Shown here: positions 13,889 through 46,612 of the stretch, piece after piece
How the letters are laid out: every line of letters begins with the position of its first letter
How positions within the stretch are numbered: the stretch's first letter is position 1
NCBI GenBank assembly: GCA_019828595.1
Contig: JAHQRK010000004.1
Coordinates: 2,108,001-2,172,000 of the forward strand
Length of the DNA: 64,000 bases
Reading direction: 5' to 3'
Origin: Aphanomyces cochlioides
Lineage: Eukaryota > Oomycota > Saprolegniomycetes > Saprolegniales > Verrucalvaceae
The notes under the pieces: generated by a model
The model's database searches: none
What the model was told of the DNA's origin: nothing
Seen by the model: the letters and a program-made list of their open reading frames with translations, nothing else
Program-made: the position numbers and the translations under genes

Positions 13889-13913
13889 GTATAATCGGCA
13901 CAACTTTACTTTA

Positions 13914-15846
13914 CAGTGGTCGAAAGCATCGAGCGACCTTCCGGATAAATGATTATTTTACGGAGATATCGAACTCTACAATTTTCATAAGAGAGATTCA
14001 TAAATTTATAAGATAATCAAATATGGAGAGTCATTACAAATTATCAAAATCACCCAGATTGCAATCGTCACAACTGTCATCATCGCTTTCAGATTGACTA
14101 TCCGAAGTCAAGCTTGATTCCGCTCGATCGTCTGCGGCATCCAAGTTTTCAAGGTATGTCGCCATGTCAAGCACCTTTCTCTCAGTGTGACGAATACAAT
14201 CGTAAATGACGCCGCTGCGTAGGCAATCAAACTCACGATCAAGTCGCTCACGGACGTCTGGAAACTTGGTGGAGGTATTGTACTGTCGGCCGACTGCACC
14301 TATGACGATTGACCAGATCATTTCAATAGGCTGGAAGTCTGAATGGTATGGGGGTGTGAAGACGACTTCGTGGCCACGATCTTTTGCCATTTTCACAATC
14401 ACAGGTAAAATGCTCGTCGCAATGTATTCCTTCAGTTTGGCCCATAGTGTTGAACGATATTCGCGCTCACCAACTTCTATGTCGAAGTTCCGACAAGCCT
14501 CAGCAAGTTTACATTTCGTCCATGTACCCTTTGGGGTGTCGTCAGGTAGACCCTTATGATATTTGGCATTGTCCATCGCAAAGATCAGGGTTTTCTTTCC
14601 TAGGGCGTCGACTTCATTGAGCAATTTTTCAAACCAACCCACGAAATAGGTATGGTCGAACATTGCATGATAGTCTTTTGGTTGCTTCCGGCCGCCCTCA
14701 AATGCATTGTAGGACAAAAGTTTTGATTGGTCTGGTCCGTCGGCTAAGATGCCAGCAATAAAGCACAGTCTTCGTCCCTTGTGCTTTGGTTTTGCGTCGC
14801 TTGCTTCGTCAGGGTGGTAGACACTGTCATTATGGCGTGCATAATGGTGATGTATGTAGGATTCATCCAAGTATACGACCGGTCGAGGCTGTGAGGACTC
14901 AAATACCGTAGCCATGTATTGAATGTATTTATCCCTAGCACTCGCGATTTCGTTAGAAAGCCTTACAGATTTTGTTCCCTTTCTGTCACCTCGTCGAAAA
15001 CCTTTCTTGACCAAGAACTTTTGCACAAGCCTCAAACATGCATTGACTTCCTTCGAGTTATTGCGGTCGTACTCGTACAGTAAATTCATCACATCTTTCG
15101 CGACCACTCGAGTTCGCGTTAATCTGCGTTCTCGTACGCAAGATTGGATCATTGATAACACTGATTTCGTGTCTGGAATTCTTGCTTTATGGTTGATTCT
15201 ATTTGCAGCCACTTGAGCTGAAGTCACGTTTGCATTGTGAAGGTATTCTGACCAAACCTCTTTGACGACATGCAAGCTCCTACCAACAAGCTGCGCTATT
15301 TGTTCTGCAACATTTGCGGTGCCCTTTTGTCGCATATGGGCATGCATTCGAAGTATGACTAGTCGTTCGTCTCTTGACACGGTCCGATGTCTCTTATTGT
15401 CGACAAAGCTCGTGATCTCCTCGTATTGCTCGGTCGTGATTGCAGGCATCGTCGTGTGCAGGCAGTCAACCAAATATGGAGACACGCGTATGACCGACCA
15501 GTCATCCATGTGTCTCATGAGTTGGTGTTCATCGACCAATGGAATTGCATGACAAACTCATATGTCACTCAATATTATATGTCAAAAGGTTCACACCGGC
15601 TTCATAATTTATCAAATATGCAAAGGAATATATATATTATTACAGATTATTGTATTTTACAGTCTAAAATGACATACATTTTGGAACTATTTTCATCATT
15701 TTATGAAGAGCATTTGATTTGAGAGACTCTCGTCAGAATGGTTGCATTCGCAATAAGAAAATGTATAGGACTCCAAAATTTTGAAAAAATACGCTTTTTT
15801 ATGATGACACAATGTAAAAAAGGTCGCTCGATGCTTTCCACCACTG
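13914..15846. mobile_element. Complete DD82E IS630-like transposon nested in Merlin
   Basis: 1933 bp. Terminal inverted repeats CAGTGGT(C/G)GAAAGCATCGAG...CCTT match over 27 bp with one mismatch. TTA lies directly outside each end (13911-13913 and 15847-15849). The target was the left inverted repeat of the Merlin element, whose undisrupted right repeat shows only a single copy of that trinucleotide position. The duplication is therefore best read as 3 bp (TTA) rather than TA. Confidence 0.93.
14034..15539 (-). CDS. DD82E IS630/Tc1-like transposase, intact
   Basis: 501 residues, uninterrupted. An N-terminal helix-turn-helix region (RDERLVILRMHAHMR...AEQIAQLVGRSLHVVKEVWSEYL) is followed by a second DNA-binding segment (RERRLTRTRVVAKDV...VQKFLVKKGFRRG). 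The catalytic core has Asp225 in VVYLDESYIH, Asp323 in FAMDNAKYH and Glu406 in QPIEMIWS, exactly 82 residues between the last two. That spacing matches the DD82E group (called Sailor, as I recall) of the IS630-Tc1-mariner assemblage. The C-terminus is acidic (SESDDDSCDDC). It is homologous to 61672-63075 (intact), 45060-46553 and 36318-37230 (both broken). Confidence 0.92.
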   Translation of the reverse strand: MVDEHQLMRHMDDWSVIRVSPYLVDCLHTTMPAITTEQYEEITSFVDNKRHRTVSRDERLVILRMHAHMRQKGTANVAEQIAQLVGRSLHVVKEVWSEYLHNANVTSAQVAANRINHKARIPDTKSVLSMIQSCVRERRLTRTRVVAKDVMNLLYEYDRNNSKEVNACLRLVQKFLVKKGFRRGDRKGTKSVRLSNEIASARDKYIQYMATVFESSQPRPVVYLDESYIHHHYARHNDSVYHPDEASDAKPKHKGRRLCFIAGILADGPDQSKLLSYNAFEGGRKQPKDYHAMFDHTYFVGWFEKLLNEVDALGKKTLIFAMDNAKYHKGLPDDTPKGTWTKCKLAEACRNFDIEVGEREYRSTLWAKLKEYIATSILPVIVKMAKDRGHEVVFTPPYHSDFQPIEMIWSIVIGAVGRQYNTSTKFPDVRERLDREFDCLRSGVIYDCIRHTERKVLDMATYLENLDAADDRAESSLTSDSQSESDDDSCDDCNLGDFDNL

Positions 15847-15899
15847 TTAGCCCCCGGTTGCTGTTTTAAACACAACAACTCAGCATAGAATGAATAGTA

Positions 15900-15921
15900 T
15901 ATCCGGATAATTATCCGGATA
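15900..15921. repeat. Merlin subterminal palindrome, left
   Basis: Two TATCCGGATA decamers, each self-complementary, separated by AT. The 22 bp together form a perfect palindrome. The mirror copy in the right repeat is at 17281-17302 and differs at its last base. It is a likely transposase binding site. Confidence 0.85.
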
Positions 15922-15983
15922 CATAGGAATGCCAAAGTGTCATTTTGATCTCTCGCAGAAGCAGAACCAAGAAGACGAATGTA

Positions 15984-17065
15984 TTATGGATATTTACACA
16001 TAGCTATGACTAATCCCTTGAAATACATGATACCTGTTGCATTTGCTGGAAAGTACCAATTGCGCCACATGAACATGTCGAGGTAAGATTGCAACTGCTC
16101 ACCTCTCAATCCTCGCATTGCTTTGAGGTATTGTTTGATGCGCACTTCCCACACCCCTTCGATTCGCAGGGTGTGGGCACCATTGTCTGGATTGACAAAG
16201 TTGTTCGAATGGTTGACCCACATGTGGGTATACCTCATGTGCCGAAGCGATGGCGTGTTGGCAAGAGTACGTCGCTCGTTGGCCGATACGTACGACGCAA
16301 ATTTGTCGGACACAATAGTCGTTCCTAATAGTTTATCAGATAATTATAAACGGTCAAAATAGTTACCTTCGGCAATGTGTTTCTCGATGATGGGCATGAG
16401 AGTCCGCTTTGTTCTGTCGTTGTAAACCAGCACGCCAAACCACTTGTTGGTCGTTCTGTCAACACCACCAAAGAGCCAACGGTCGTCGTGCTGAGTCCCT
16501 CGCCCATATTTGGATTTTTCTTCAGAGACGTCTCGTCAATCTCGAACACCGAACCAACTCCTCCAATCTAATAAATTGTCAAAATTAATACAAAATGAAG
16601 TATCAAATCAAAGAGGTACCTTTACATTGCATGCCCTCATTTCCTTCGAGCAGATTCCACGGCAAAACTTAAACCACGAGGTCGCCGTTTTCGACGACAA
16701 AGCAAGATCTTCTATCGCCTGTCGTGATGGCTTCATAGTAGCCCAGTTGAATAGAAGTCGGATAATCGACGACATGGGCAGATTTGAGCCAAGAAAAGGA
16801 GTATTTTGCCTCACACTCCGCTCTGAATCACAGCCGTTCCGACGACGACGCCAGCGCAACAGGTCAGCGGACAACTTCATGTCACCCAAGAAGACACTAC
16901 ATATCATTCTATTACCTATTAAGCCAACCTATACGTTGCATTAGAATAGACGAAATACAGTAGATATCATACCTTCATACACCATTCAATGGTTGTGCGT
17001 TCAGTACTTGTGGCATTCATCACCGCTTTGAACGTGTAATCGGATAGATCTGCCAACTCATACAT
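15984..17065 (-). pseudogene. Merlin (ISXO2/IS1595-like) transposase, one frameshift
   Basis: Starts at the ATG at 17065 with an exon ending EWCMK|GTATGA (16973). It continues through a Zn-ribbon-like segment (MKLSADLLRWRRRRNGC, 16907-16608) and an intron (GTACCTC...TTATTAG). A third exon carries IGGVGSVFEIDETSLKK (first catalytic Asp). After another short intron (GTAACTA...ACTATTAG) comes TTIVSDKFASYVSANERR (second Asp), ending with a VNPDN..HT...IEG...W region. In exon 3 one base is missing after SLKK: the correct frame continues KSKYGRG..., while the open frame reads NPNMGEG. The original Cys of RWRC is Arg here. Homologous relics lie at 38820-39260 and 50234-51063. Confidence 0.85.
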
Positions 17066-17280
17066 GACGCTGCTGGTTGAAAACTTGGAAGATAGCGAAG
17101 TGAAATGTCAAATGACTCCGATACTGGCCCACTTTCTCGGGGAATGAAGTAAACTGGTATACAAATTTCAATATTAAAATTTTGTGATTGTGTGTGTTTT
17201 TGGCAGAAATGGGTGGTCAAACTCCACTTTGGAGTAAGCGGATATTATCCGGATAAATTGGTGGCATGAGGTGTGGTATT

Positions 17281-17302
17281 TATCCGGATAATTATCCGGA
17301 TG
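17281..17302. repeat. Merlin subterminal palindrome, right
   Basis: TATCCGGATA, AT, TATCCGGATG. A further half-site (GGATATTATCCGGATAAA) lies at 17240-17256. Confidence 0.8.
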
Positions 17303-17377
17303 TATTATTCACTCTGTGCTGAGTTGTTGTGTTTAAAACAGCAACCGGGGGTTGAAGTAAAGTAGTGCCGTATAATC

Positions 17378-18758
17378 TAACCACTGTTTGACTTTGTTCA
17401 TATTCGTCTCGTGATGAATAGACCATGAGACGAGTATGAACAGAGTCAAACCGTGGTAATGCAAACGCGTCGTCAGACTGCATTTCATATCTCTATGCAT
17501 GTGCGCAGTATTGAACAACCCCCCTGAGTAAGGTGCTTGACGCTATTTAGCAATGCTGATACCTTTGCCATGAAACAGATATTCGCGACACACAATCGTG
17601 ATAGTGTATTAAATTCATTTAAAAAACGATTCGTTCGGCATTAGAATAGTTCACGTTACGTCTGAGCTGGATACAAGCTCATGGTGTTTGCTCACCGAAA
17701 TGGTGCTCGCAAAGTTGCAACTTGGCGCAACAGCGAGATCTCAAATCAATTCAAATTCAGCCAATTAAATTTAAAAGTTACTTTGATTCGTCAAAATCGA
17801 AATGTAGGCAATCTGTTCCTACGATTTCCAATAATAATACATCATATAGGATGTCATATTCTACCAATAGAAACACTTGAAATAGGAGCTGGGCTGACAG
17901 ACCTTTTGTAGGTCGACCAAAGGCTGCTCATTTGGTAACCTGCCAAGTCGTATCATGCCGACGATGTTAAGGTGCAACTTAAGGAGGATTATTACAAAAG
18001 ATTGACTGCGTAGCTCCGGAATATCAATGGTCCACAAGACCCATTGTGTCGAAAAGAGGGAGTGTTATTGGAGTTCCACACTATCAATTTCGATAGTGTG
18101 AAACTTCTATTATAATATAAACCTGACAAATTTATAGCCAATCATATACATCTATTCTCAAAATTGTTCAACCTATATCAACCTATTACAAGAATTGACA
18201 CCCGCTAATATGAGATGTATAGCCTAAGTATTGAAGGCCGCTTATGCTTTGGGGGTAGCCTCCGCGGTTTCCTGACGTGTAATATATGTCATCCCCAAAT
18301 TTCATTTGCTGAATCGTTGCATGTCAGTATGGCTATCTCTCGGAATAACGAATCCACCACAAATCAATACACTCTGATAACAAATATATATGCGACCATT
18401 AAATAATACAGGATTTGTCTTTTTTCATGTTTGACGTCTACGAACAATAGAAATTCATGATACAGCAGATGCGCACAACATCACTCAACAATGCAACATG
18501 GCCGAAAAAAGTCTCCGACATCTCTTAAACCTTGTATGAATTATTTTAACCAATCAAAATATTTTCCATGTACATTCGGCCAATTAGAGTGCTAAGAAAT
18601 AAAATATAAATATCAATTTCAGCCAATCAATTTTGGAACATAGGTTCCTACAAACTTTCAACATATAACGTCGGAAGTTGACAAGAAATATGCTATCCAC
18701 CCATTCAATTCTATAAATCATTGCATACTACACACATATTTGAATTGTCCCCGACAAC
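17378..18758. other. AT-rich intergenic stretch
   Basis: No gene recognised. A short inverted pair (ACTATCAATTTCGATAGTG) at about 18078-18100 could form a stem. Several CCAATCA boxes are present. Confidence 0.4.
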
Positions 18759-19524
18759 TACAGGGAGCGACGTTGAATAACAGCGCGTATGAGCTTTTTG
18801 ATTGGCCACGAAATTGGACTTATATGGCCAATCATATCGAGCTAATCAAACCCTTGAATAAAAATACGACAGCTGGTTCATTGACAAAATATAAATTATA
18901 GCAATTTATTTGTTGATAAGAGGAAATTCACATAGATGATTCTTGAAACAACGAAACAGTTAACAAAGGTCACAAGGTATTAAAGGTAGCATATTTAAAT
19001 CATGCAGAACTTCAAGAAGGAGAATTCGTGCATCCATTCAAAGGTTAGACATCTCATCCCAATTTTAAAAAATGGATAAAATAATAAATACTTTAATCAA
19101 TATAATACGACATATTTTATTTTAAATACCTTGTTTAAAATATCACAATATCCTGCAACCAGTCGTTCTTTTATACATCATGTTCTTTCAATCAGGCGCT
19201 ATGTTTCTACTGTGCTTTACCTCTACGCCGACTCATGGACACCAGATCAATTCACTTCCCGATTTCCTGTCAAACAGTCGCATGCTCGTCTTAATCCCTC
19301 TTCGGGGGGGGGGTCTGCCCCAAGTCAGCGACATCGCTACCCTACACCTTGGTTCTCTAGGACACAGTTCCCCGCGAGAATAGACCAGGGCAACAGGTCA
19401 ACAGTGCTACTGTCGTTTGGAAATCCAAAGTTATCTTTGGGTGGGGTACCCAGACTTTAGTAAAAAAACTCTTTGGCGGGATATCATTTTAATTTTAATA
19501 AATCTTTTTTTTGTTCAGTGTTCT

Positions 19525-19766
19525 AAAATGGTGTTTAGTTTCCTAAACATCATTTTAACTCATTTTAAATAACATTTAGAATTGAAAATTTGTTTTAAAA
19601 CTAATTTTCAATTCTGATTTAGAAAGGCATTGTTTAAAATCAATGCTTTTATAATTCAGAATTGAAAATCAGTTTAAAAACAAATTTTCAATTCTTTTAT
19701 ATTTTAGAAAAGGAATCTCTTTCTAAATTATAAAAGAACCTATTTAAAAAAGAACTCAAGAGTTCT
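19525..19766. repeat. Run of six short AT-rich hairpins
   Basis: Consecutive inverted repeats: 19525-19538/19543-19556 (14 bp, one mismatch), 19578-19590/19603-19615 (13 bp exact), 19623-19632/19641-19650 (10 bp, one mismatch), 19658-19669/19684-19695 (12 bp exact, same arms as the second), 19704-19710/19720-19726 (7 bp exact), 19751-19757/19760-19766 (7 bp exact). They sit just 3' of the pogo transposase stop. Confidence 0.85.
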
Positions 19767-19803
19767 TAAAAGAGAAAAAGAACATGTATATTAAAGTTGA
19801 GAT

Positions 19804-20955
19804 TTAAATCGACAAAGCCTTTTTGAAACTCGCTCGCACTTCATCTTCGGATATCATGCTCCAAGCTCGAATGGCCCTTTCTATCATAACAATGCGCTTT
19901 TCTTTTGCAGTTGTGGCTGTGACATCAGACATGATCCACAAATCTCGCAAGTGTTGCTTGAAAGGCCCCATGATAGAAACATCTAATGGCTGGCAGTGCG
20001 AGGTACTGTTGGGGGGCAGAGGGTAAAGTACACTTCCAAGTTCGTCACCAATGATGCGTTCGCTTTCGTTGCTGACATGACAGTCAAAATTGTCCACCAA
20101 GAGAACAGATGGATCCTCAATGTTGTCCACAAGTACATCGCGCAGATACCTCTTCCACACATTTCCATTCATCCACGCCTTCTGTTGCATGTAATAGAAA
20201 TGACCACCTGGGTAGCTGTCAAACTCGTTCTTCTCAATTGAGCCACCATCAACACCGCGAATGATAAACACAATTGGCAGTTTCAGATCATCGGCACGCA
20301 CTGTGAGTAAAGCTGTCATTCGACTTGAATGCTTGTCACCGGACGCAACATAACTTCCACCACCACGAACGGCCCATATAGTCTTGGGACACATGTCGAA
20401 ATAAATGCCAGTTTCGTCAGCATTGTACAAACAGTTTATTGGCAAGTCAGCATGCTTCTCAGAGAATTCTGTGGCGAAGGCACGTCGCGTCTCTTCAAGA
20501 TCGATTTGTGTCTTCTTTTGACGACAGATGCGCTGACGAGTAAAGTCGTGGCGATGAGCGAAGTTTTGGAGAAGACGAAGCAAGGATTTATAGCCAGATG
20601 ATCTTGTTGTAACATATTCCTGAAGCCAAGTGTTGTGATTCACGCGGAGGTAATTGATAAGGTGAGCGGTCGTCACGGCCTTCTCTTCACGTCTTAAGTC
20701 GCGGACATAAATTGCAAGTTCGTAGCTGTCAGGGATGATTGGCTTGGCCCCACAGTTGCCAGTATTCTTCTTTCGTGCCTTTGAGCCTGTGAAATTTTTC
20801 AACTTGTCAGTGTCACGAATCCATTCACGCAAGGAACTCTCGTTCCACCCGGTAATTCTTGCGGCTTCGCGAACAGATGTGCTTTCAGCGATGGAAACAG
20901 CGCGCAACTTCTCAGCCATGGTAGGTCTGGCACGTCGAGTCTTGGTAGCATTCAT
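19804..20955 (-). CDS. pogo-type DDE_1 transposase, intact
   Basis: 383 residues. The N-terminal helix-turn-helix is EKLRAVSIAESTSVREAARITGWNESSLREWI. The shared linker TGNCGAKPIIPDSYELA follows, then the core with YNADETGIYFD, LLVDNFDCH and QPLDVSIMGPFK, the same three Asp and the same 36-residue spacing as the 6188-7351 protein. The two enzymes are roughly 60 percent identical by eye and strongest in the catalytic half, so they are sister subfamilies and not recent duplicates. With intact ends around it, it may be active. Confidence 0.95.
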   Translation of the reverse strand: MNATKTRRARPTMAEKLRAVSIAESTSVREAARITGWNESSLREWIRDTDKLKNFTGSKARKKNTGNCGAKPIIPDSYELAIYVRDLRREEKAVTTAHLINYLRVNHNTWLQEYVTTRSSGYKSLLRLLQNFAHRHDFTRQRICRQKKTQIDLEETRRAFATEFSEKHADLPINCLYNADETGIYFDMCPKTIWAVRGGGSYVASGDKHSSRMTALLTVRADDLKLPIVFIIRGVDGGSIEKNEFDSYPGGHFYYMQQKAWMNGNVWKRYLRDVLVDNIEDPSVLLVDNFDCHVSNESERIIGDELGSVLYPLPPNSTSHCQPLDVSIMGPFKQHLRDLWIMSDVTATTAKEKRIVMIERAIRAWSMISEDEVRASFKKALSI

Positions 20956-21550
20956 CCGAGGCTATCAATTTTCGCGGTTGTCAAATTCAAAAGAATGGGA
21001 AATTGTGCCGCGAAAAATTTAGCCAATAAAATTTTGTTATCAGAAATAAAGATCTATGATTGGTCAATTCAAATTTAATTATGCCACGCTGTAATTCAAC
21101 GTCGCTCCCTGTAGTATGAACATCAACTCACTGCGAAGATCCGTCAGAGTAAATGCGTTCAAGCGCTCCTTAGAAGCCGAGAACGTAACGTTAGAGTATG
21201 TATTCGATTGTATGTCGAAAGATCCAAAAGGACGATGTATAAGCGCTGTCATGAACAAGTTTGCACTGCATTTGGTCTTTACTGCTGGTGTGAAAAAATG
21301 ACTCGCCACAAATACAGTAGTTTCGAACTTTTGCCACTTAAAATGTGGCTGCTAGAACGATTTACAGCAAGCCAAATTGCATTCGATGAACGGTTGTGCG
21401 AAATGGGGCGAATTCTGGAAAATACATGACGAAGCGCGAAGCTGGAGGAGTGATGAAATATGCCCCTGAATGTAAAAAACGAGAATTAATATATTAACGT
21501 GTCATCACTACACCAACGCTACAAACTCAGTCGATCACCAAGATGCGTCT

Positions 21551-22860
21551 ATGCTTTGCTTTGGTTTGAGTTTGTTACTGACAGACTGTTCAAACATGAA
21601 TCTTTTTATTTGCCTAGTTCGAGTGAAGACAAGTGAGCAACAAGATCTTACCTTGTATGCCGATGGAAATGTTGTGACTTGTCCCATCCTTGCCATCGCT
21701 CTGGCACTGGCCATGCAAACTGCTCCATGTTTGGTCTTGTTGGAGACTGTTCGCCCTAACGTCCATGAGTTAGAAATTGAGGCCATCGAAACCCTTCCTC
21801 TTATTGAGGTTTTGTCATTGGCTGAGCAATCGGATGTCGCAAGCCATAATGCGAGCAAGATGGAGCTAAAAAGCGGGCAATCAAAACAAAACGCTAACAA
21901 AGGCACCTTGCATGCGCAGTCAAGTCAATCGCCCACTCCGCCGAATTTGTATACCTGTTGGAGTCAACGCGCAATTGTCTTCGCACTCATTTCGACTTGG
22001 CGGTGCCCAACATGCTTATGGCGAAGCTGGTGTGAGTATGCAGTGGATATCGAATCGTGGTGGATGGAATCTTGCATCTACACGAACCGTCTGGTCATAC
22101 GTATTCAACACGGCTCGAGAAGGTCAGAGTTTCAAAGATCCTCAGCGGTTGGAATCCAAACTCACATGTACCTCTCGATTGCTTAGATATCCTTGACATT
22201 GTCGTTCTCGGGCAACTTCGAGTCTTGCAGGAACGACTCTTCTACACTTGCACTGGCCTGAAAGGCAGAGGATTAAATGTCGTGAAGTTTCGGATGTCTG
22301 TACCTCGAGGCTTTTACGAGCAATACCACAACTGCGTGCGTTGAAAGCCGTTGCTCCTATTGTACAGCGAATTGATATCTGTGTAGAGCAGGCTGGATTC
22401 ACGCGCGACGACTTTTGTTTCAACGTCGGCGTCGTTTCATGAAGCCTACAACCGAGAAAGTCAGGTTGATGAATCAGCTCTGCCTAAGAAAAATACACCC
22501 ACGGTTGACACGATCCACCAACAGACATTGCTGATCGCGTCAAGAATGCGCTTGACGTCCACGCGCTCGTCTGCTGTGTGGTTAGACTGGTATGCCGGTG
22601 AACCGCTCGCGTGGAGTTGGATATTTATCGAAAGAAAAGGTCAAACGCAGCAAATATTGTCGCGTACATGAAGTTGTGCCTATCGCGAGGTTTTATTCTC
22701 GATGAGGAGATGTCAAATTGCCGAGACGATGTGATGCGTTTGAGCAACGAAGCTGAGTTAACAGTTGTCAAATTTCTAAACGAGAACGGCGTGAGAACAC
22801 CAAAAAGCAGTGCAGTGCTAAAGCAGATGCGTGCACTGCACAATAAGGATATGTGAATGG
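21551..22860 (+). pseudogene. Crypton-type tyrosine recombinase, decayed
   Basis: Successive blocks in shifting frames make up the C-terminal half of a YR transposase. CPILAIALALAMQTAPC lies at about 21690-21730. SSHSFRLGGAQHAYGEAGVSMQWISNRGGW...TVWSYVF lies at 21970-22105 and includes the HxxR motif, the downstream W and the presumed nucleophile Tyr. KILSGWNPNS...LQERLFYTCTGL lies at 22110-22260. WLDWYAGEPLAW lies at about 22583-22620, and a C-terminal helical block runs 22620-22856. These patterns are those I know from Cryptons, which are abundant in oomycetes. At least three frame changes and a stop preclude function. The upstream half was not identified. Confidence 0.7.
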
Positions 22861-23199
22861 GCAAATACGTGAATTTGAGAGCCGTCGCTCAATGAGTACA
22901 GGAAATGTGGGCACCGAAAACATGAAAATGCAGGCTGAAATCGGGGAATCACAGGAAGTTGTAACAAATTACTCTACTGCAGTACTGTCTACACCTGAGA
23001 CCCATTTATCATGGGAATTATCCTAGATTGATAGAGATTGGTGGGGAAATATCCCTAATAGAAGTAAAGGTGGGTGCGCGCATATGTGCTGAAATATTCC
23101 ACCCTTCGAGAATGCGTTGCAACCTTTTTGTCACAGACCAGTGTGTGGATGAAAAACAATCATTGTGAATATTGAACATGATAAAACTACCTATTTAAC
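22861..23199. other. Intergenic stretch
   Basis: No gene or repeat recognised. Confidence 0.35.
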
Positions 23200-26504: not shown

Positions 26505-26681
26505 ATGCCAGACCGTTCACACTGTTGTAACGTGTAACCAAGTGAAACTACTGCTTTGTGAATTTAGTACATGAGAAGAGCTAGCAGCGTTGACGCCTAA
26601 TGCTACGGAGGAGTTATTCTAACCCAAGAGATGATTGAATGCAGATTGTTACATTACACAGCTGGCTAACACAAAATAATA

Positions 26682-26903: not shown

Positions 26904-26945
26904 GTCGCTTTGAACACAATTCTTGTTCTTAGTTACACACGGTAA

Positions 26946-27390
26946 GCTGTGACGTGTTCTTAAGTTAAACCAAAATGATGGTTTGTCTCATGTTTTTCAA
27001 TCTTCAGCATCACAAAATGGTTCGTGCATCCACTCCAAGTGAGAAACTGCCACTACTGCATATCTCTTGAAACATTATAAGTGTTGTCTTAGGTATGTGC
27101 CTTATCGTGAAACTTTATCAAATAATAATTTGTCAACGCCCATCTTTTTAGCGTACTTTCAAATCACTGGGTTTCTCATATTGTAATTCATCTTCAAATA
27201 TTATACGACGTTGCTACTCAGATTTGCAAATATATGCTAAATTCATCAACTACTGTGTTTGTGTTGAATGCAAAACAAGTAAATCCTAAGGGGACATAAG
27301 AAACATTGATTTAGTCTCATGGGACGGTGACTTACTATGACGACGTTCACCAGAATAGAATTCATAGCATGTTTGACTTAGAAGCAAAGA
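26946..27390. other. Intergenic stretch
   Basis: No gene recognised. Probably contains the outer terminus of MULE copy 2. Confidence 0.35.
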
Positions 27391-27592
27391 TGTCGGCGGC
27401 GGTGATCACTAGCAGACGACGAGCTCGCAATCTATCCACTGAGAAAGAGGTTTAGCCACTGGCTAACCTTCAGCTTGTCCATTTTGACAGTGTCCAGGCG
27501 GCGATCACTAGCAGACGACAAGCTCGCAATCTATCCACTGAAAGAGAGGTTTAGCCACTGGCTAAACCTTCAGCTTTTCCATTTCGACAGTG
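27391..27592. repeat. Tandem duplication, period about 99 bp
   Basis: GATCACTAGCAGACGAC starts at 27404 and again at 27503. The two units stay nearly identical through CTCGCAATCTATCCACTGA, GAGGTTTAGCCACTGGCTAA and CTTCAGCTT.TCCATTT.GACAGTG. Each unit contains the small palindrome TTTAGCCACTGGCTAAA or a variant. Confidence 0.85.
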
Positions 27593-28940
27593 AATTGGCG
27601 TCACTGTCGGCGTCGGACTGCCGTTTCGGTCGACGGTGTTGACGTAGTTCTTCCAGGCGTCATGACCGCTTTTGCGAAAGATGAACTGGCGGCGCGTCGG
27701 CACTTCCGACTTAACACCAGAGAAGAACGTTGGTTTAACGGCTTGGAGCCAGGCATCCGAGAGCGGAATGTCGACCTTCAAGTCCAGCGCCCTGTTTCCT
27801 CGGCCGACGGTATTGTCTGTCATCGCGTCGACAGAGGTAGAATTCTTATGGACGACAACGGGATGCAAGAATACACTGGCAAAACAAACTGTTCAAGAAG
27901 ACACTGGACCTTGATTCGTTTGCAACTTCATCAACAGCCGAGGTAGAGCAACTGCAGCATTGAAATTCATCACAATGTTTTGAACCAAGCTGACGACAGA
28001 TGTAAATTCCTTAGTCATTATGGTAATCACCCCGTTGACATGTGTATCTGCACCCAACGGGCTACTTGGCATTGTGGGAATAGATACCCGGACTTAAATA
28101 TATCATTACCCGTTTACTGTCGTCGGGGATTCGTCGTGGATTAAAGGCAGTACGCATGCTCTTTGTATGGAGAGCTCGCTGTACTCACAAATTTCGTCAA
28201 CACACATTTGCAGAGCAGTGTAAAGTGTCACACAAGTGACAGATTAAAAAATCTACAGCTAAAACTCGAAGTGGGTCCTCCAATGCGATTCCGAACGATA
28301 CGGACTTGCCAACCAGCGGTCTCGCCTCTGTCTCGTCGGACAGTAATAAGATCTGTTACGCAATCCAAACCTGGCTTGTGTGCAAGTATGAACAAAGCGT
28401 CGCTAAGGTTGCTATTTTTAACTGATGTAGAAAATACATTGGCAGCCATGTGAATGCTGCGAGGAGGGTGTAGCCGAATACAGTGTGAAATATTTTCATC
28501 ATTTTAGTCTTCAGCGACGCGCACAACTCAGTTGGAGCTGTCCCCGTCCGAATGAATATGCAAATTTCAATATCCAAGCTGTGATCATGACGCGTTCAAG
28601 TCTAGACGATCGTGACTACTAAAACTCAGGCTGTGTCTAAGCCCCAGTAGCACCTGTGGCCTGACCACCGCCTCTGGCTTTCAGAGGAACCCAACTAGTC
28701 TATATGAATCGACGCAAGTCGATCTCCAATCTTTGGACAAGGCGCTTCATGTCTATCTAGCTTAGCACAAGTATGACGTCCAGCCCGAGATGATCATCAC
28801 CGCTCTAGGATTGTTGGTGCTGCTTTTCACGACAATGGAGTCGGTGGGGGAAGGCGCAGCGTCAGTTTATGTTAACGTTTATTTATTTTTCTCTTGTTTT
28901 CATTAATGCTTTTGCTATGATTATATTATAGAGTTTTTAC
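27593..28940. other. Region without a recognised gene
   Basis: One minus-strand ORF (27868-27551, 105 codons) has a fairly regular composition, but it overlaps the tandem duplication at its 3' end and matches nothing I know. A 73-codon ORF near 28356-28577 is equally anonymous. Nothing else supported. Confidence 0.3.
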
Positions 28941-29119
28941 ATCAGTTAATGCTCTTTAGCTTGCGTTCCAAAGTTAGATACCTTTATAAACGTACTAGTA
29001 TATTTTTGCTTCGTAAGATATGGCTTATAAATGCGTCGTGTAACTACCAAAAACGATATTCGTCAATTTTCAATAAATATATTTCAAAAATTAATTTTCG
29101 ATGTCTCCTCAAGAATGCC

Positions 29120-29900
29120 AAAGTCTTTTTGTCGTGTTGAGCACACCAAACAACCATACAATAAGTAAGATAAAAATGATTTATATTAACATCTTGTAAG
29201 TCAGTGACGTGTTTCGCGGATGACCTCTGGAGGACAATAGGATGTGAATGCTAGGTGGCAGAAGATGCAGGAAATCTTCATGTTGTGACACTTTGCAGTG
29301 ACGGATCCCTTTTATAACTAGAAGTGTGTCCACCCGGGCGGTCAACCGAGAAAGACGTCGATCGCCCGGGTGGACGTACATGAAACATGCACGTTGGAAC
29401 TATGCCATATCCGGTATGGGGCCTTCGATCTCTTTTGTGTTAAATGAAAAATGAATGGAAATCGGCAACTCCTTAGGTGAAAACAAAAACCTTACTTTAA
29501 TACAATCTCAAGTTTTAATCCCCTCATTTTAATTACAATAAATCAACAATAAACAGAAAATTGTTTTGGTTATCATTCCTATGTCATTCAGTCGAGGTAA
29601 TTAGTGGTGACCATTTGCTTCGAAGCCCACATCAACAGCGGAATGAGCACATGTGCCGTGACGACTCGGCTGGCTGCAGGTTTTGCGATGAAAGTTGTAC
29701 ATATTTACTCAATTGAGCTTTTCCAAAGACATCTGAACGATTTCATGTGTTGAAGTGTTCCATGGTGAAATTGCCCAACTGATTGGGATTCCCCACATAG
29801 GAACATGCACCGCGTAGTGTGAATTGCACTGTCTCGACAGATGTTTGTGTAACAAGTTACATTTCCTACAAATCTTCCCGTGATTCCCTAAATTTAGACT
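29120..29900. repeat. Unclassified dispersed repeat, copy B
   Basis: Same orientation as copy A at 4110-5320. It preserves the TATA-like CCCTTTTATAACTAGAAG, the hairpin, ATGCACGTTGGAACTATGCC and the 3' block with GTGAAATTGCCCAA and GTGTAACAAGTTACA. It is shorter than copy A because it lacks the GC-rich insert. No ORF is conserved across both copies beyond a short frame through the hairpin. Confidence 0.7.
29328..29375. repeat. Perfect 13-bp inverted repeat, second copy
   Basis: Arms GTCCACCCGGGCG (29328-29340) and CGCCCGGGTGGAC (29363-29375), identical in sequence and spacing to 4338-4385. The 22-nt loop differs at only two positions. Confidence 0.9.
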
Positions 29901-29949
29901 GTAACTCCTGAATTTTAGCGCGCTTAAACATTTTTCTCGCGCTCAATTG

Positions 29950-30750
29950 GACTCATTGTCGACCCAGCGCCTCTTCGAACACGAAGCATGTTGGCGTTGG
30001 CTTGAGGTTGACTCACTTCCAATTAATGATAAACAACTTTGATGCATCAAATTGAACCATTGCAAGGCCCACGACTACCCCGTAGTCAATGCCACGCATC
30101 CGAAAAGCGTCTCCTTCAGCTTTCGATCGCTCTGGTGGCTCATTGTTTACTGATTTGTCGTTTCAGTCACCGATTCTATCGTCGAGTTCATCGTTAGCAT
30201 CGTCGTCGTCAGTCATTTCGACCACTGCCGCAGTCTTAGCTTTCACGAGCAGCATCTCCAGTGGTGGCTGATCCTTTATGTGGTTGGAGAAGTGTGTTGA
30301 TGGGCAGTGTGGGTAGGGGTGCAGTTTGTTGAGGGGGCGGTGTTTCGACGGAAGCGGCTGTGTGGACAAGGCGCGTCAATGAGCGGCGACCGCAATCTGG
30401 CGATACATCCAAAACCCAGGCGCTAAGGTTCTCAGGGGATTATGATAGCAATTACATCTGTAAACAAATCGAATAATAAATGAATTTTCGGATAATAGAT
30501 ATGTCGGAAGGAATGTGGGAACACAAATAATTGTCGGATATTTTATGGCATGGAGGAACGATACTTAAATAGCTGTTTGATTATCTCTCGACAAAAGCAC
30601 GTACAGGTGAACTCTCAAGGGTACATCATCAACAAATATGCACAGTACAAATCTGACTTAACATATATTATAAAAGATTCCTATTGGTAAAATTTCCATT
30701 TAAATGAAGATTTAAATGGTCAAATTTAGAAAAAATTAATAACCTATCCA
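29950..30750. other. Region without a recognised gene
   Basis: Short open frames on both strands around 30089-30369 contain Ser-rich or Asp-rich low complexity (TDDDDANDELDD on the minus strand) and show no domain. Otherwise AT-rich. Confidence 0.35.
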
Positions 30751-30882
30751 ATAGACCAATTTTGCTATCACACAATGTGCAATTCAGTTGAGTGGAATGA
30801 CCATTCCACAAAGTCTAAATATAGTTTGATTTTGCCATTGCACAAAGTGTGGTAGAAGCTGAAATCCGTAACTCCCAAGACA

Positions 30883-31950
30883 ATGGAAGCATTCAGACAC
30901 GTCGCACTGCATCTGATAGTGTTGCTACGCGACGAAGCTTCCACAAATCCTGCGGCTCCATTCGCGTCGCTAGCCACCAAGCTGGCCTTGCAATTTTCAC
31001 TTCCGTTTTCGGAGAGATGAAATCATCGAGCTCGTTTCACTTCTCCAAATTCCCAATCCATTCAAATCACGCCGTGGTTACACAGCTACACCCACTGAGG
31101 CACTATGTATGCTTCTGAATAGACTTATTTGGCCGAATAGACTTGGTGAAATGATAACTAAATTTGGGCGAAGTAGAGAGGCCATCTCATCCATCACAGT
31201 CGAGCTGACCGACATGATTTATAGCAGGTTCAAAGATCTATTGTACTGGGACGAACAACGACTGAATGCTGCTTGGTTTGAACAGTGTGCTCAAGCCATC
31301 TCAGACAAAGGAGCCCCACTAGACTGCTGTGTTGGGTTTATTGACGGCACTGTCAGAGGCATATGTCGACCCATAGGAGCCCTCCAAAAAGTCACTTTCA
31401 ACGGTCATAAGGTATAGCTTAGCCTTCTCAACTGACTATCAACGATGAATCTAGCGTAAAAATGCACTTAAGTACCAAGCTGTCACTGCTCCTGATGGTA
31501 TAATAATTCACCTCTATGGCCCAGAGCCTATCACGTCACGACGCATACTTATTACAGCGGAGTGGCTTGACAGCATTTCTTGAATCACGACTCAAATCTA
31601 ATGGCATGCAATACGTACTCTATGGTGACCCTGCTTACGGCATGGGAAAGATTATATTTTCTGGCTTCAAAGGAGCTAGATTATCCGAAGACGAGGAAGA
31701 GTTCAACAGTCGAATGAGTGCCGTGCGCGTAAGTGTGGAGTGGGGATTTGGCATTGTTCTCAAGACACTTTCAATGATTGACTTTAAACGTTCTCAAAGA
31801 CTAAGTACTCAGCAAGTTGACCAGCACTATGCTTTGGCTGTTTTGCTTACCAATATACGAACATGCTTGAGAGGAGGAAACCAAATTTCAAAAGCCTTTC
31901 ACATCAAGCCACCAACTGCACGTGAATATCTGTACTATAACGAAACATAA
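30883..31950 (+). pseudogene. PIF/Harbinger transposase (DDE_4), near-intact
   Basis: Begins MEAFRHVALHLIVLLRDEAS. It continues in another frame as DEIIELVSLLQIPNPFKSRRGYTATPTEALCMLLNRL, implying a frameshift near 31015. The core reads GFIDGTVRGICRP (first Asp), YGDPAYGMGK (second Asp) and SVEWGFG (Glu), the Harbinger DDE triad. A GT-AG intron of 43 nt (31412-31454) joins FNGHK to RKNALKYQAV. A second frame slip at about 31528 separates LYGPEP from SRHDAYLLQRSG. The order and spacing are those of a full-length family member, so only two small lesions separate it from an active gene. Confidence 0.85.
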
Positions 31951-31961
31951 AATTAAATGTA

Positions 31962-32796
31962 TTAATCTTTACTCTTGCTCGATTCCTCTATATACTTCAT
32001 GAATGAAGCCATGAGCTGCATATTTTGCTCGCGTTCTTTCATTTGCTGCTCACGCTCCTTCATCTGTAGTTCACGTTCCATCCGCTCGATTTCACGGCGT
32101 GCAATTTTTTCTTCACGCTCAAAATTGAATCGCGCTTCGTCAAGCTCAATTCGTCGACGAGCAATATTGTTGGACTCTCGCTGCATATTGTTTGATTCGT
32201 GAGCTATAGTAGTGTAGTCTTTCAGAATGAGCATTGCTTCATTTGGCTTTTTGGACCCGATTGGGGCTGCTGACGAAGCTTGTCACAATCATCGCCCAAA
32301 GATTCCCTCTTTCGCTGTATTGCTACCATACCAAGGCGGCATACGTCGTCACAATCGTCTTCTCGTTTCTTCATTTTCGCCAGTTTAGAGCTTTTCTTCT
32401 CCTGCTTTTCGTTGTTTGTTACATCCATCTAAACATTATAGTCATATCATGTGCTATATCTAGCCTTATACATACCAAATCTACGATGTCATGAAGCAAT
32501 TGCTCCCTCTCGTTGTATTCTTCGTCAGTACCTGACGCCCGCAGGGAGTTCAAGGTATCCTTCTTGAAATTGACAACCAAATCCTCGAACCTACGCCGAC
32601 AGGAGTAGGCATTCACAGCTCCATCGCAGTGAATTTCGCACATAGAACCCGACAGTTCCTCCCAACGTCGCCCGGTTTGACCGTAGTCGGCAGCAAACGG
32701 CTGGGCTCGCATGACTTCTCGAAGAAGGTCGACGTCTGTCGACGCCTTGAAGCGGAACACTTCATTGCGCTTGCCTTCACTCATAAAATTGACCAA
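31962..32796 (-). pseudogene. Harbinger Myb/SANT-like accessory protein, one frameshift
   Basis: Exon 1 (32796-32476) carries a trihelix/Myb-like fold: FRFKASTDVDLLREVMRAQPF...WEELSG...YSCRRRFEDLVVNFKKD, with Trp and aromatic residues at the expected intervals. A 47-nt GT-AG intron (32429-32475) follows. Exon 2 is basic (QEKKSSKLAKMKKRED) and then, after a one-base slip in the A5 run near 32252, continues in the next frame as a long charged coiled coil (IARREIERMERELQMKEREQQMKEREQNM) to 31962. Such proteins bind the transposon ends and carry the transposase to the nucleus. Confidence 0.75.
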
Positions 32797-33244
32797 TCAT
32801 TCGTCAAACTCTAATCCACAGAGCTTGTAGCGATAACCGTGTTTTGTTCAAAGGAAGTCTGTGCGTTCAGAAAGGAATGTTCGTCAAAAGTGTGTGTCTT
32901 TTGCACTTTGTGGAATAGCAAAATTCGTCTAATATTATGTTTGTGTTTCATAAATACCCGCAAAATATGAAATCGTATTTTTCCAAGGTTTTTAGTATTT
33001 CACGAGTTGTTCCATAGTCTTTGAAGTAGAATCTATGTCTCTTGTAGAATTAATAGGACAAGTTCATGAAAATATTACAAAAGTGATAATACGAATTACA
33101 CCTCTCAATCGAATACCACTACACCTTTGCTCGCCCAACTTGAGACACAGCCACAGTCCACTAGAGAATAAATATTTTAGATTTATTATTGTGGTTTTAA
33201 TAAAAACTGGAGTCGTGCGGAATAAAATTTGACGCAAGCAAATT

Positions 33245-33290
33245 GACGCAACAATTGACGCATAAAAATTTCAAGTATAAAATAACAGAC
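33245..33290. repeat. Short tandem AATTGACGCA repeat
   Basis: Three near-copies of A(A/T)TTGACGCA occur between about 33227 and 33262. Minor. Confidence 0.5.
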
Positions 33291-33597
33291 GTCCGAAACG
33301 AGTTTTATAAACGACGAGACTCGTTCGAAACACCCCTACCAGACAACCGACGCATCGACTCAAGGCGAGCAAGCTTATGCTTTGGAACGCTAATAATGAA
33401 ATAACCATATAGAGAGTAATGCTTGGGGTTCTCCAACTCATGGTGGTTGGAGACGACGTGTCTGATCATTACAAATCGTTTCTCTCACGACCTCGAAATC
33501 AAACACAAGTTTGTTTCATTGTGTGCGTCAACATAAATGAAGTATGCGTGGATTATTCTGAACACTTGACAAACAATTTTGGGCGAAAACCACAATA

Positions 33598-34222
33598 TTG
33601 ATTTAATACAAAGTTTGGGTGGGTGCTCAATCGAATCATGCCGGCAAATCGATCCACCAATCGCGCTGATTGGCTGAAATTTTCAGAAATGATTTTGATT
33701 GGCTGTTCTATTGAGATTATTTTGACTTGCTTTCCACACTGCAGAGATTGATATGTACTTTTTGAACTTTGAACGGATAGCAGCTTGTGCCTCGTCCAGA
33801 AATGTAAGCGGCCGAGCTTTGATATGGCCAACTAGCCATTCCTTTTCGTGGTCGGCAAATGTCCCGTCCACCGCTGTTCCTTTTCTATGGTAGTCGCCCG
33901 TTTGTTCGTATCAGTGTATCCAGTTTGATGTGGTTTGCTTGTTCTTGCTATAAACGATTGCCAACTGTCGACGCTTAATTCCGAGGAAGAAGTAACCGTA
34001 CAAACAGTGCATGACGGTGTTCGTGCTGGCGTGTTGCGATATGGCTGACTCGATGGCGCTCATGTGTCGACAACTCGCAACCAAATGAAGAAATATCATC
34101 AATTGATTGGACAATTTTACCAATAAAAAGAATGCAAAAATAACCAATAGAATCGGTTTTGGATCGATTGTGCTGGCTGTGATATACCACGCCAAAATCC
34201 GAAATTTCACTCGAATGCACAA
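33598..34222. mobile_element. Non-autonomous IS630-like element, 625 bp
   Basis: Inverted ends TTG(A/T)...A(A/T)ACAAA.TTTGGG and TTGTGCATTCGAGTGAAATTTCGG are related to those of 60296-60825 and bordered by TA on both sides (33596-33597, 34223-34224). The minus strand holds the remains of a transposase N-terminus only: MSAIESAISQHASTNTVMHCLYGYFFLGIKRRQLAIVYSKNKQT (34104-33915) and, in another frame, EKEWLVGHIKARPLTFLDEAQAAI...ISISAVWKA (33850-33725), the second helix-turn-helix of IS630-type enzymes. The catalytic domain is absent. Confidence 0.8.
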
Positions 34223-34449
34223 TACAGTAAAACCCCTTAGTATGAACTAGTCGCGGTGGAGTGGGATATTTGTTCAAATTGAAAGGGGTTAATCAAGCCA
34301 TAGGATAACCAAGGATTTTGTATTACCATAGACAGTTCTTGTCAACATCATACCATACGCCACAACAACATCACAATGGACACAAGCACATCTGTGCTCA
34401 ATCCGTTATGTGACACAAAATGCGAGTGCTAAGCTAGCCAAGTTAACAT

Positions 34450-34670
34450 TAGCATTGAACAAATCGCTCTAGCTCCTTCATGATAGCATTTCGGTGTTGC
34501 TTTGTGTATGTTACAGCGCCATTAGAGCACTTAAAACGAGCCACGATGTCTTTATTACTACGCACATGTGTCAAAACCATGCTGTTTAGCATGAGAGGGT
34601 TTTGTTCAATCTAGAAGGGCGAAAACCAATGAAAATCTCTCCGTGGATCAAAAACTTGTTCAATTTGACA
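34450..34670 (-). pseudogene. Possible gene relic of unknown family
   Basis: One minus-strand frame reads QIEQVFDPRRDFHWFSPF, a TAG stop, then IEQNPLMLNSMVLTHVRSN...RFKCSNGAVTYTKQHRNAIMKELERF. The protein-like composition on both sides of a single stop suggests a decayed exon. I could not assign a family. Confidence 0.3.
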
Positions 34671-34734
34671 GGTGTTTAGCTATACGAGGTGTTTAAAGTA
34701 GCAGTTTTTTTGTATCATAGGAAATGACTGTTCC

Positions 34735-34930
34735 CCCCATTTTGGCTATTTCCCCCTAGAATTCAATTTGATACATTTTTTGCCGAGCATATTCGACACA
34801 TTAAGGGCATAGCCGTGAGCGTCCGCGATGACGTCAACAACCTTGGCACGTTTTTAGTGGTGATTGCTGGGAAGCCATGGTAAAAAATGTATCAAAGGAT
34901 TTGGGGGGGGGAATAGCCAAAATGGGGCAT
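34735..34930. repeat. Short element with about 45-bp inverted arms
   Basis: Left arm CCCCATTTTGGCTATTTCCC... to TTTGATACATTTTTTGCC (34735-34783). Right arm, in reverse complement, CCCCATTTTGGCTATTCCCC... to TTTGATACATTTTTTACC. The centre is about 100 bp. No target duplication was obvious. Confidence 0.8.
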
Positions 34931-35469
34931 TCAAGCTGGGAGGCTTGGAAACTCACTCTCGAGACAAAATTTTCAATCTGTAGATGGAATTCTGTTTAAT
35001 GCATTCTCTCAGTTACATTTGCTTGACGTGGCCCACCATGGGGATGATCCTGTAAGCCGTACTGTTGATGGCTTCCAATCGCAAACGCAATTTGCGAGCG
35101 TCCGCAAAAGAGCCGATTTTACGCATCGACTACCCTCGGCTTTTCCTCTTCCGATAACGTGCTCTTTGCTGCTTTCGACATCAAAGAAGTAACTCATTGG
35201 CTGTGTGCTATTTACTGTATCTCCAGAAAGTGTTCTTGTCGCCGATATTCACCGCCTATTACAGCAAGTCTCACGTTGAATGCGCATTTCTCACTGTACT
35301 CATTTAAAACATCTTTTTTTATATTTGAAGTAGATAGCCATTTGTCAATTCTCAAGTTGCCTGAGGACTTGTCTCAAGTTGGACAAGCAAAGGTGTAAAT
35401 CGATTATTTACATACAAGTCTTCAGTTCAGTTGTATTGCTTTATACTGTATACTACAGGTTATATACTA

Positions 35470-35920
35470 CCGTATTTCCCGTAAGGTTGTCACCACGAAT
35501 GATTTTCGAAAATGGTGACAAGTCCAAAGGAAATCAGATATCAAAACGAGGTACATTTGATTGGGTAAAAATTAGACTTATTTACCAATCATATTATTAT
35601 GAACACCTTGCAGTCGTATGTCGACTTTACGAGTGGCTGACTCCAGTTTGGGAGAATGAAAACCTGCAACGCTCATTTGGGTCCAGGTTTGCCGACTGCA
35701 ACGCATGAACACGACAAATTTATGGCCCTGGTATCTAATTGAGCCATTGCATTTCTTCCAATAAGATCTGACTGGTGACAAGTCAAGGGGAACTCCAAAA
35801 AATTCATCAGATTGTATTATAAATGTATACTATAAATTTGTATGAATCATTTAAATAATTATATCAGTGATGACAACTCAATGGGAAAAAATAGTGGTGA
35901 CAACCTTACAGGAAATACGG
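35470..35920. mobile_element. TA-flanked MITE, family 1, copy 1 (451 bp)
   Basis: Inverted ends CCGTATTTCC(C/T)GTAAGGT...CACCAC of about 27 bp, with TA outside each end (35468-35469, 35921-35922). Highly similar along its whole length, in inverse orientation, to 46613-47066. An ORF inside (plus strand, about 35497-35708, MIFENGDKSKGNQ...FADCNA) is preserved in the other copy with an in-frame 3-bp difference. It encodes no known domain. Confidence 0.92.
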
Positions 35921-35954
35921 TATTTGATCAGCCGAGAGACATGAAGTACACTAA

Positions 35955-37386
35955 CAGTGGTCGACAGCATCGAGACGTCATTTTGTTGATGATTCACTTC
36001 AAGAACAGATAAAATTCTGAAATTTAATACCAACGTAGAAGTCAACTTGCCCAATGCAATGAAATAACATATAGTTTCTCAAAAGCAATATCCTATGATT
36101 TATGATGCAAAGAATTTATGAATGAATGTAAATGTCATCGTAAATATGGAATACCTACTATAATTTATAACGATACAGATGACAAATTTATACAGTACAA
36201 GCAATGACTTTGGCATCCATATTGGTGACTCTTCGTAAGATGTTGTTGGAGGCCACATTGACGCGTCGACTTACAAGCGCATATGCGACGATGTCGCTAA
36301 GATGCAACCATGAGCACTCACTAAGGAAGAACGAATAGACATCATAAGAATTCAAGTGTAACTGCGCCACGAGCAAACGATGAAGATTGCCAGCACTGGC
36401 CAGAGCGTATCCCAACGAATTGCGACTATGTTAGGCCGTGGTCGCGACACAGTAGAGAAGGTATGGAAAGAATACATGAACCAGCAGACCATCGAAGTCC
36501 GCCCTGTACCTGCAAACAGAACGAACCATCCCACACGGATTTCCAACCATCCCATGGTTATCTCCGATGTTCAAACGTTTGTTCGTGAGCGACGGCTCAC
36601 CAGAACTCGTACAGTTGCACGAGATGTGGTTGACTTTATGCAGACTAAAGGATACCTCGTAGTCGAATGTTCGCAGTCTCATGGACATGCATCAGCCATC
36701 CAATACGTACAGCGCTTTCTTAAGCGCCTTGGATATAAACGTGGAAACAGGGAGGGAACCCAACCACTTGTATTGGCTTTGAAAAATCGTATTGTGAGAG
36801 ATGCTTACGTAACCAAAATGGTACAGTATGTGTGCTTTGTGAACCCTCATGTTCGTCGCACAGTTGTGTATCTTGACGAGAGCTATATCCACAATAACTA
36901 CTCTCGCCACAAAGACTCTCTTCATGATCCGAATGACGCCAAGGATATTCAGGTCAAACAACAACACAAGGGTCAAAGATACTGTTTTATTGGTGCGATT
37001 GTCGACCAAGGTGTGAATGATTCTTTTCTTTGTGGTTGGACTTCTTTGTTGGTGGCAAGCAGTCGAATGACTATCACAATATGTTCAAACATGCCTACTT
37101 TGTTGCTTGGTTTGATGGGTTACTGAAGGAGTTGGCCTCACGTGGCATATCGTACTCAACGATTGTAATCGATAACACAAATCTGCATAATTTTATAATA
37201 TCATTTAAGAAAGGAATTTCAAATCATTGAGATTGAATGGTTCCTTCGAAAATTTATACTTGTGTAACTTGATATACTGTTAAAACCTTATTTTTGTTAC
37301 CGTTCCAAAGTCGGGGGGAAATCAGTAGAAATCCTATGAAACTTGATGTTTTTCTCAAATGTCGTCTTGATCCTGTCGACCACTGT
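35955..37386. mobile_element. DD82E element, truncated gene (1432 bp)
   Basis: Inverted ends CAGTGGTCGACAGCATCGAG (left) and CAGTGGTCGACAGGATCAAG (right, reverse complement). TAA sits directly outside both (35952-35954 and 37387-37389). The ends resemble those of 13914-15846, so this is the same family with a second example of a TWA flank. Confidence 0.88.
36318..37230 (+). pseudogene. DD82E transposase, truncated
   Basis: Reads ALTKEERIDIIRIQV, a stop, LRHEQTMKIASTGQSVSQRIATMLGRGRDTVEKVWKEYM, then the second DNA-binding region (RERRLTRTRTVARDVVDFM...RFLKRLGYKRGN) and the first catalytic Asp in VVYLDESYIHNNYSRHKDS. A frame change near 37030 leads to FVGGKQSNDYHNMFKHAYFVAWFDGLLKEL and the second Asp in IVIDNTNLH. 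The coding sequence then ends abruptly and the Glu-bearing part is missing up to the right terminal repeat. Confidence 0.85.
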
Positions 37387-37501
37387 AAATAGCTATTTAT
37401 CATGGAAATGACGGAGAGGCTGGGCAAATGACATGTGATTCAGTCACGGTAGAATTGACATACTCAAATACAATTCAAGTGGAATAGACGAAAATGACAA
37501 T

Positions 37502-46553: not shown

Positions 46554-46612
46554 TCCATGCACTCACTGTCTTCCTGAAGGATGTGTTTGAAGCGACACAT
46601 GCTACGTTACTA

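What the first reader, a model, noticed from the sequence alone, without database searches (positions are those of the whole stretch)
13911..37389. IS630-like DD82E family with a TWA, not TA, target duplication
Two independent elements (13914-15846 and 35955-37386) start CAGTGGT and end ACCACTG symmetrically, and carry TTA and TAA respectively directly outside both ends. The transposases have exactly 82 residues between the second Asp and the Glu in three copies. TWA duplications are the hallmark of PIF/Harbinger, while the Tc1/mariner group normally duplicates TA. A 3-bp site in an IS630-type enzyme would be notable.
Basis: partly seen in the sequence, partly recalled or inferred. Interest (0 to 1): 0.8.

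Follow-up and report, generated by a model that had tools for sequence, protein, structure and literature searches.

The report
Mariner-like transposons with three-base target TNA
These are mobile DNA elements of a known mariner-related type whose enzyme inserts at T-any-A and duplicates three bases, whereas the textbook rule for this group is a strict two-base TA, so they offer a natural comparison for how such enzymes choose their target.

Summary
Four DD82E-type elements lie in the window (13914-15846, 35955-37385, 44918-47351, 61380-63207), each with CAG...CTG inverted repeats and an exact 3-bp direct repeat (TTA, TAA, TAA, TTA). Together with copies fetched from the same 76-Mb eukaryotic genome, 56 of 61 resolved elements and short relatives (54 of 59 without duplicates) carry an exact 3-bp repeat. 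The motif is TNA, not TWA: 42 TWA and 12 TGA/TCA among 54 unique insertions, T and A fixed, pyrimidine before and purine after (Y|TNA|R). Of 71 perfect CAGTGGT-type ends, 70 are preceded by TNA. Uninserted copies of some targets show one triplet, including one inside the window (17277-17370). The enzyme has a Mos1-type fold and is related to the described DD82E superfamily Sailor, published with 4-bp TATA duplications and GT/CC ends; those features are not met. Three-base duplications are reported in other mariner relatives (TBE, ANT; Bogo, TAA), so this is a new variant of a known kind. The biochemistry is inferred.

The parts
13914..15846 (-). DD82E element 1, 1933 bp, CAGTGGT...ACCACTG ends
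13911..13913 (.). left TTA copy of the 3-bp duplication of element 1
15847..15849 (.). right TTA copy of the 3-bp duplication of element 1
14034..15539 (-). DD82E transposase (501 aa as listed; first Met gives 494 aa), D225/D323/E406 in the numbering, 82 residues between second D and E
35955..37385 (+). DD82E element 2, 1431 bp, deletion derivative: region with the Glu lost, premature stops
35952..35954 (.). left TAA of element 2
37386..37388 (.). right TAA of element 2
44918..47351 (-). DD82E element 3, 2434 bp, CAGTCCCCG ends, TAA on both sides; transposase remnant 45087-46572 with broken frame
61380..63207 (+). DD82E element 4, 1828 bp, CAGACTGCG ends, TTA on both sides
61672..63075 (+). 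intact-looking DD82E transposase of element 4, 467 aa, spacing 82
17277..17370 (-). paralogous empty target site of element 1: 94-bp gapless match (91%) to the joined flanks, 18 bp on one side of the junction and 76 on the other, with a single TCA at the junction
5505..7509 (-). in-window comparison: inverted repeats CAGGGAACG...CGTTCCCTG around a DDE_1 transposase ORF, flanked by TA and TA, the third base not shared (borders read by me from the arms printed)

Best explanation
The two regions are copies of a cut-and-paste DNA transposon group of the IS630-Tc1-mariner type with a DD82E catalytic domain, related to Sailor. Shown by sequence: the ends are CAG...CTG; the element lies between two copies of one TNA triplet; uninserted copies of some of the same targets carry one triplet; the fixed bases are T and A, and the surrounding target is Y|TNA|R. 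Inferred: the transposase dimer excises the element at the outer edge of CAG and joins its 3' ends to the target 5' of the T on each strand with a 3-bp stagger, and gap filling makes the duplication. The rule '5' of T' is the same as for TA enzymes, but one freely chosen base pair separates the two T:A pairs, so the adenine that Mos1 reads next to T on the same strand cannot be what is read here. Short elements with the same ends are moved in trans.
Against: 5 of 59 unique insertions lack an exact 3-bp repeat: L016, L024 inner, L035 and L048 show TAA/CAA, TCA/TTA, TTG/TTA and GAA/TAA (one or two bases off), and L066 shows CTA/TAA, which could be a true 2-bp TA event or a lost A. 14 of 72 loci gave no resolvable end pair. 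Some candidate empty sites do not read the triplet cleanly: for the outer insertion of L023 the matches read CCA (71-74% identity) or have a gap; for L047 one match reads TGG and one has a gap; for L023 inner 5 of 19 differ by a base or a gap; L054 matches a 47-bp piece reading TTA. No biochemical test; no second genome was available to repeat the count.
Confidence: 0.93

Rival explanations
1. The duplication is strictly TWA, the PIF/Harbinger type; TGA and TCA copies are later mutations.
For: TWA is preferred: 42 of 54 unique insertions against 39% among TNA sites of the window.
Against: 12 of 54 unique insertions have TGA or TCA identically on both sides, which one mutation cannot give; the TGA insertion L047 has three sibling places with a single TGA.
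Confidence: 0.02
2. The true duplication is TA and the element has one uneven extra end base.
For: L066 reads CTA/TAA, a 2-bp TA repeat.
Against: The extra base would have to change with the target and sit right in TTA cases but left in TAA cases; TGA and TCA copies contain no TA at all. One DDE_1 element in the same window shows TA/TA, so the reading can tell 2 from 3, though that is a single comparison.
Confidence: 0.02
3. A PIF/Harbinger-type (NuwaII-like, C|TNA|G) enzyme moves these elements and the DD82E genes are passengers.
For: The published NuwaII target C|TNA|G (PMC4482050) resembles Y|TNA|R; one Plant_tran ORF lies in the window.
Against: Eleven end types by their first seven bases (one mutated type left out) are found around DD82E genes or remnants, and each has at least one exact TNA pair.
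Confidence: 0.02
4. These are ordinary Sailor elements with the published 4-bp TATA duplication, misread at the edges.
For: Same DD82E spacing and colinear D-E insert.
Against: 0 of 61 pairs have any 4-bp repeat; ends are CAG, not GT or CC; none of the motifs listed is HCELNPIE.
Confidence: 0.01

Closest known systems
Sailor (DD82E) superfamily, PMC8533490
   Same: DD82E (published range DD78E-DD111E), YLDE and MDNA motifs, D-E region colinear by profile comparison, reported in Stramenopiles
   Different: Published TSD mostly TATA, TIR usually starting GT or CC, motif HCELNPIEL; here TNA, CAG, mostly SDLQPIE. On a quick tree the two are separate sets (SH-aLRT 86 and 91, both under the 95 mark)
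Tc1/mariner (Mos1, Sleeping Beauty)
   Same: Fold; insertion 5' of T on both strands; DDE_3 domain
   Different: Strict TA with 2-bp stagger (PMC5481204) against TNA with 3-bp repeat; spacing of about 34 (recalled) against 82
TBE of Oxytricha (Tc1/mariner), PMC12242761
   Same: 3-bp duplication with two fixed outer bases and a free middle base
   Different: ANT, the reverse order of fixed bases; ciliate enzyme
Bogo of Blepharisma (pogo type), PMC9942856
   Same: putative TAA/TTA duplication in a mariner relative
   Different: pogo/DDE_1 transposase, C-rich ends; only TAA/TTA in the passages seen
NuwaII and PIF/Harbinger (PHIS), PMC4482050
   Same: TWA, or C|TNA|G, almost the same target; a 2025 paper calls TNA the classic Harbinger pattern (PMC12477816)
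   Different: another DDE family (relation recalled, not tested here); so convergence is the likely reading

Membership tests
Sailor (DD82E) | D-E spacing 78-111, mostly 82 | tested here: met
   82 in 11 and 81 in 10 of the 21 open frames that gave a spacing; 2 of 23 frames gave none because D2 did not match the search word
Sailor (DD82E) | D-E region homologous to Sailor | tested here: met
   hhalign of A1 against one HCELNPIEL protein (L082), probability 99.7, 264 columns, through the D-E stretch
Sailor (DD82E) | 4-bp TATA duplication | tested here: not met
   0 of 61 pairs
Sailor (DD82E) | TIR begins GT or CC | tested here: not met
Sailor (DD82E) | motif HCELNPIEL around E | tested here: not met
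   mostly [S/C][D/E/N][L/F]QPIE; none of the motifs listed is HCELNPIE
Sailor (DD82E) | one clade with Sailor to the exclusion of other ITm groups | tested here: inconclusive
   68 rows against two IS630 pieces only, no Tc1/mariner or pogo rows; 19 Sailor and 49 rows of this group form two sets
Tc1/mariner | TA duplication, 2-bp stagger | tested here: not met
Tc1/mariner | RNase H-like mariner catalytic fold | tested here: met
IS630 (NCBIfam NF033545) | score above curated cut-off | tested here: not met
   43.8 and 43.7 against 100
PIF/Harbinger | PIF-type DDE transposase domain | tested here: not met
   the two intact window proteins match DDE_3 only, at E up to 0.001
PIF/Harbinger | second Myb-like ORF | not tested
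   no dedicated search made

The most novel reading that the evidence does not exclude
The whole protist and oomycete DD82E group (QPIE type), next to Sailor, uses a 3-bp stagger at Y|TNA|R, so that one mariner-fold lineage shows a series TA (2), TNA (3), TATA (4) in which the rule 'join 5' of T on both strands' is kept and only the distance between the two joining points grows. Target reading would then differ from Mos1, where the adenine next to T on the same strand is flipped and read.
Probability: 0.45. Interest if true: 0.65.

Novelty: new variant of a known kind. Interest (0 to 1): 0.52.

Why it matters
A standard statement is that mariner/Tc1/IS630 enzymes integrate strictly at TA with a 2-bp stagger (PMC5481204). 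A group with many well-kept copies, the same fold and a 3-bp TNA rule gives natural variants for working out what fixes stagger and target, and suggests that the same target arose in two different transposase families. It also warns that TWA or TNA duplications around anonymous short elements do not prove PIF/Harbinger origin.

Tried and rejected
Prokaryotic and viral relatives: A1 in genome contigs and viral contigs gave none; the L082 protein in viral contigs gave none; A2 in viral contigs gave three 25-residue matches of no use. A motif scan for HCELNPIE gave one usable Sailor protein (L082, a 3.3-kb contig of a mussel symbiont assembly, probably mussel DNA); its own duplication could not be resolved. 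The same motif in the own genome gave 7 places; 4 were fetched and belong to another transposase family (L085-L088), not Sailor. Solved structures by sequence: none with P0001, two unrelated weak rows with A1. Plasmids: 4 records with weak matches, three of them named IS630, two used as outgroup. A second end type was counted (36 ends with up to one mismatch) but not tested for TNA.

Literature: in the open PMC library, listed nothing that I could see reporting TNA duplications for DD82E elements; the supplements of the Sailor paper were not readable here, so its element table may hold such cases. Of PMC8533490 I saw the outline with abstract, passages, section 11, the tables section and part 2 of 6 of the text. 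Of PMC12242761, PMC9942856, PMC5481204, PMC4482050, PMC12477816, PMC7325037 and PMC8151067 I saw passages only; all others only as search listings.

Rows dropped before counting: seven inverted-repeat pairs that I judged not to be ends of these elements (L017 twice, L018, L029 twice, W_c, W_el2); one of them (L029 outer) has a TA repeat, the others no 2- to 5-bp repeat. Loci L001-L008 were left out because they repeat later or window loci. For the tree 36 of 128 relatives and 19 of 121 Sailor-side proteins were used.

Full report
What is there. The window lies in a 76.2-Mb assembly of 94 contigs. The nearest named proteins are mostly from Aphanomyces, Achlya and other oomycetes, so the host is probably an Aphanomyces-like oomycete; this is inference. 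Element 1 (13914-15846) and element 2 (35955-37385) are as described, with TTA/TTA and TAA/TAA at their borders. Two more elements of the same group are present: 44918-47351 with CAGTCCCCG ends and TAA/TAA, and 61380-63207 with CAGACTGCG ends and TTA/TTA. The four window regions that match the 13 aligned transposases at E up to 1e-4 all lie inside these elements.

The duplication. Then came 20 shorter elements with CAGTGGT ends and 8 further stretches. Ends were chosen by inverted-repeat score and CAG/CTG with at most one change, not by flanks. Of 72 loci (68 fetched, 4 window regions), 14 gave no pair; one of these, L012, shows TTA/TTA around ends that begin CAATGG and is not counted. After removal of seven unrelated pairs 61 remain: exact 3-bp repeat in 56 (TAA 26, TTA 17, TGA 8, TCA 5), 2-bp in 1, none in 4, 4-bp in 0. 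Two are copies of a duplicated region, leaving 54 of 59. A separate count over the whole genome: 71 ends match CAGTGGTSGAMAGCATCSAG without mismatch (my count of the rows) and 70 places match with TNA in front; the missing one is the left end of L066. These ends overlap with the fetched elements and many are the two ends of one insertion, so the two counts are not independent. Of 68 printed, 43 are TWA and 25 TGA/TCA (my count of the list). TNA makes up 7% of window triplets and 39% of window TNA sites are TWA, so 42 of 54 TWA is a real preference (P about 7e-9), as is Y before and R after (97%; 27% of window TNA sites have both).

Empty sites. Joined flanks with one copy of the triplet align through the junction to uninserted copies. 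The inner element of L023 sits in a short element of which 19 other copies align; 14 read TAA once, L055 reads TGA, L062 lacks a base, L065 reads AAA, L070 GAA, and L049 lacks the stretch. For L047, L032, L043 and window 48361-48437 read TGA once, L041 reads TGG, and L013 has a gap. Element 1 against window 17277-17370 reads TCA once over a gapless 94 bp. Element 3 against L013 reads TGA once. Less clean: L024 inner, whose own two sides are TCA and TTA, meets mostly TTA; the outer insertion of L023 meets CCA in two 71-74% matches and a gap in a third; L034 and L054 meet weak matches reading TTA. Genome-wide, of 12 TGA/TCA insertions tried in one query, two had strong matches through the junction: L047 at 41 places (83-93%) and L059 (TCA) at two places (93-94%); L023 outer had one weak one (74%) and the others none through the junction. 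Those letters could not be fetched, so the L059 site is not read base by base. In the same window a DDE_1 element at 5505-7509 has TA/TA with a different third base, a single internal comparison.

How it works. Shown: a 3-bp target duplication and fixed T and A. Inferred: strand transfer 5' of T on each strand with a 3-bp stagger. In the Mos1 strand transfer complex the target adenines are flipped out and read through the backbone of V214, and the adenine next to T on the same strand is the one that matters for joining (PMC5481204, passages). In TNA that place is free, so the reading must use the outer adenine, the T, or the pair. The added preference for Y and R just outside suggests contacts at five base pairs.

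Relation to known groups. DD82E enzymes were described as Sailor (PMC8533490). One HCELNPIEL-type Sailor protein aligns colinearly with this group through the D-E stretch, but TATA, GT/CC ends and HCELNPIEL are not met. On a quick tree, 19 Sailor rows and 49 rows of this group form two sets with SH-aLRT 86 and 91, rooted on two IS630 pieces only. I therefore file it as a DD82E group related to Sailor, probably its sister, and not as Sailor. TBE (ANT), Bogo (TAA/TTA) and NuwaII (C|TNA|G) show that 3-bp targets are not unheard of.

Verdict. Observation confirmed; interpretation partly supported, TNA in place of TWA. A new variant of a known kind, of moderate interest, useful because it makes the question of how stagger and target are set in this fold testable.

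Noticed in passing
window 5505-7509: Element with CAGGGAACG ends around a DDE_1 ORF and TA/TA flanks; further DDE_1 ORFs at 19804-20955, 42047-42865 (weak) and 53346-54476 without clear ends.
   Followed up: partly
window 2811-3896: ORF with a Plant_tran (PIF/Harbinger-like) domain, no clear terminal repeats found.
   Followed up: partly
window 10872-12197: ORF with C2H2 zinc fingers, possibly a host gene.
   Followed up: no
L085, L086, L087, L088: Transposase-like ORFs with a YHCELNPIE motif in another context (FDQSTNH), a different family from Sailor.
   Followed up: partly
L029:1595-3997: Inverted repeats CAGGTCATCC with TA/TA flanks enclosing a DD82E element: a nested insertion into another element.
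   Followed up: partly
L023 and L040: Two near-identical nested insertions with the same flanks on one contig (C44), a duplication of a region; a third pair of ends of the same span is on C40.
   Followed up: partly
L082: A Sailor-type transposase ORF between inverted repeats on a 3.3-kb contig filed under a Bathymodiolus symbiont genome, probably mussel DNA in the assembly.
   Followed up: partly
window 15900-15921 and 17281-17301: Repeated palindrome-like TATCCGGATAATTATCCGGATA near element 1 and its empty site, and a near copy at 50023-50043.
   Followed up: no
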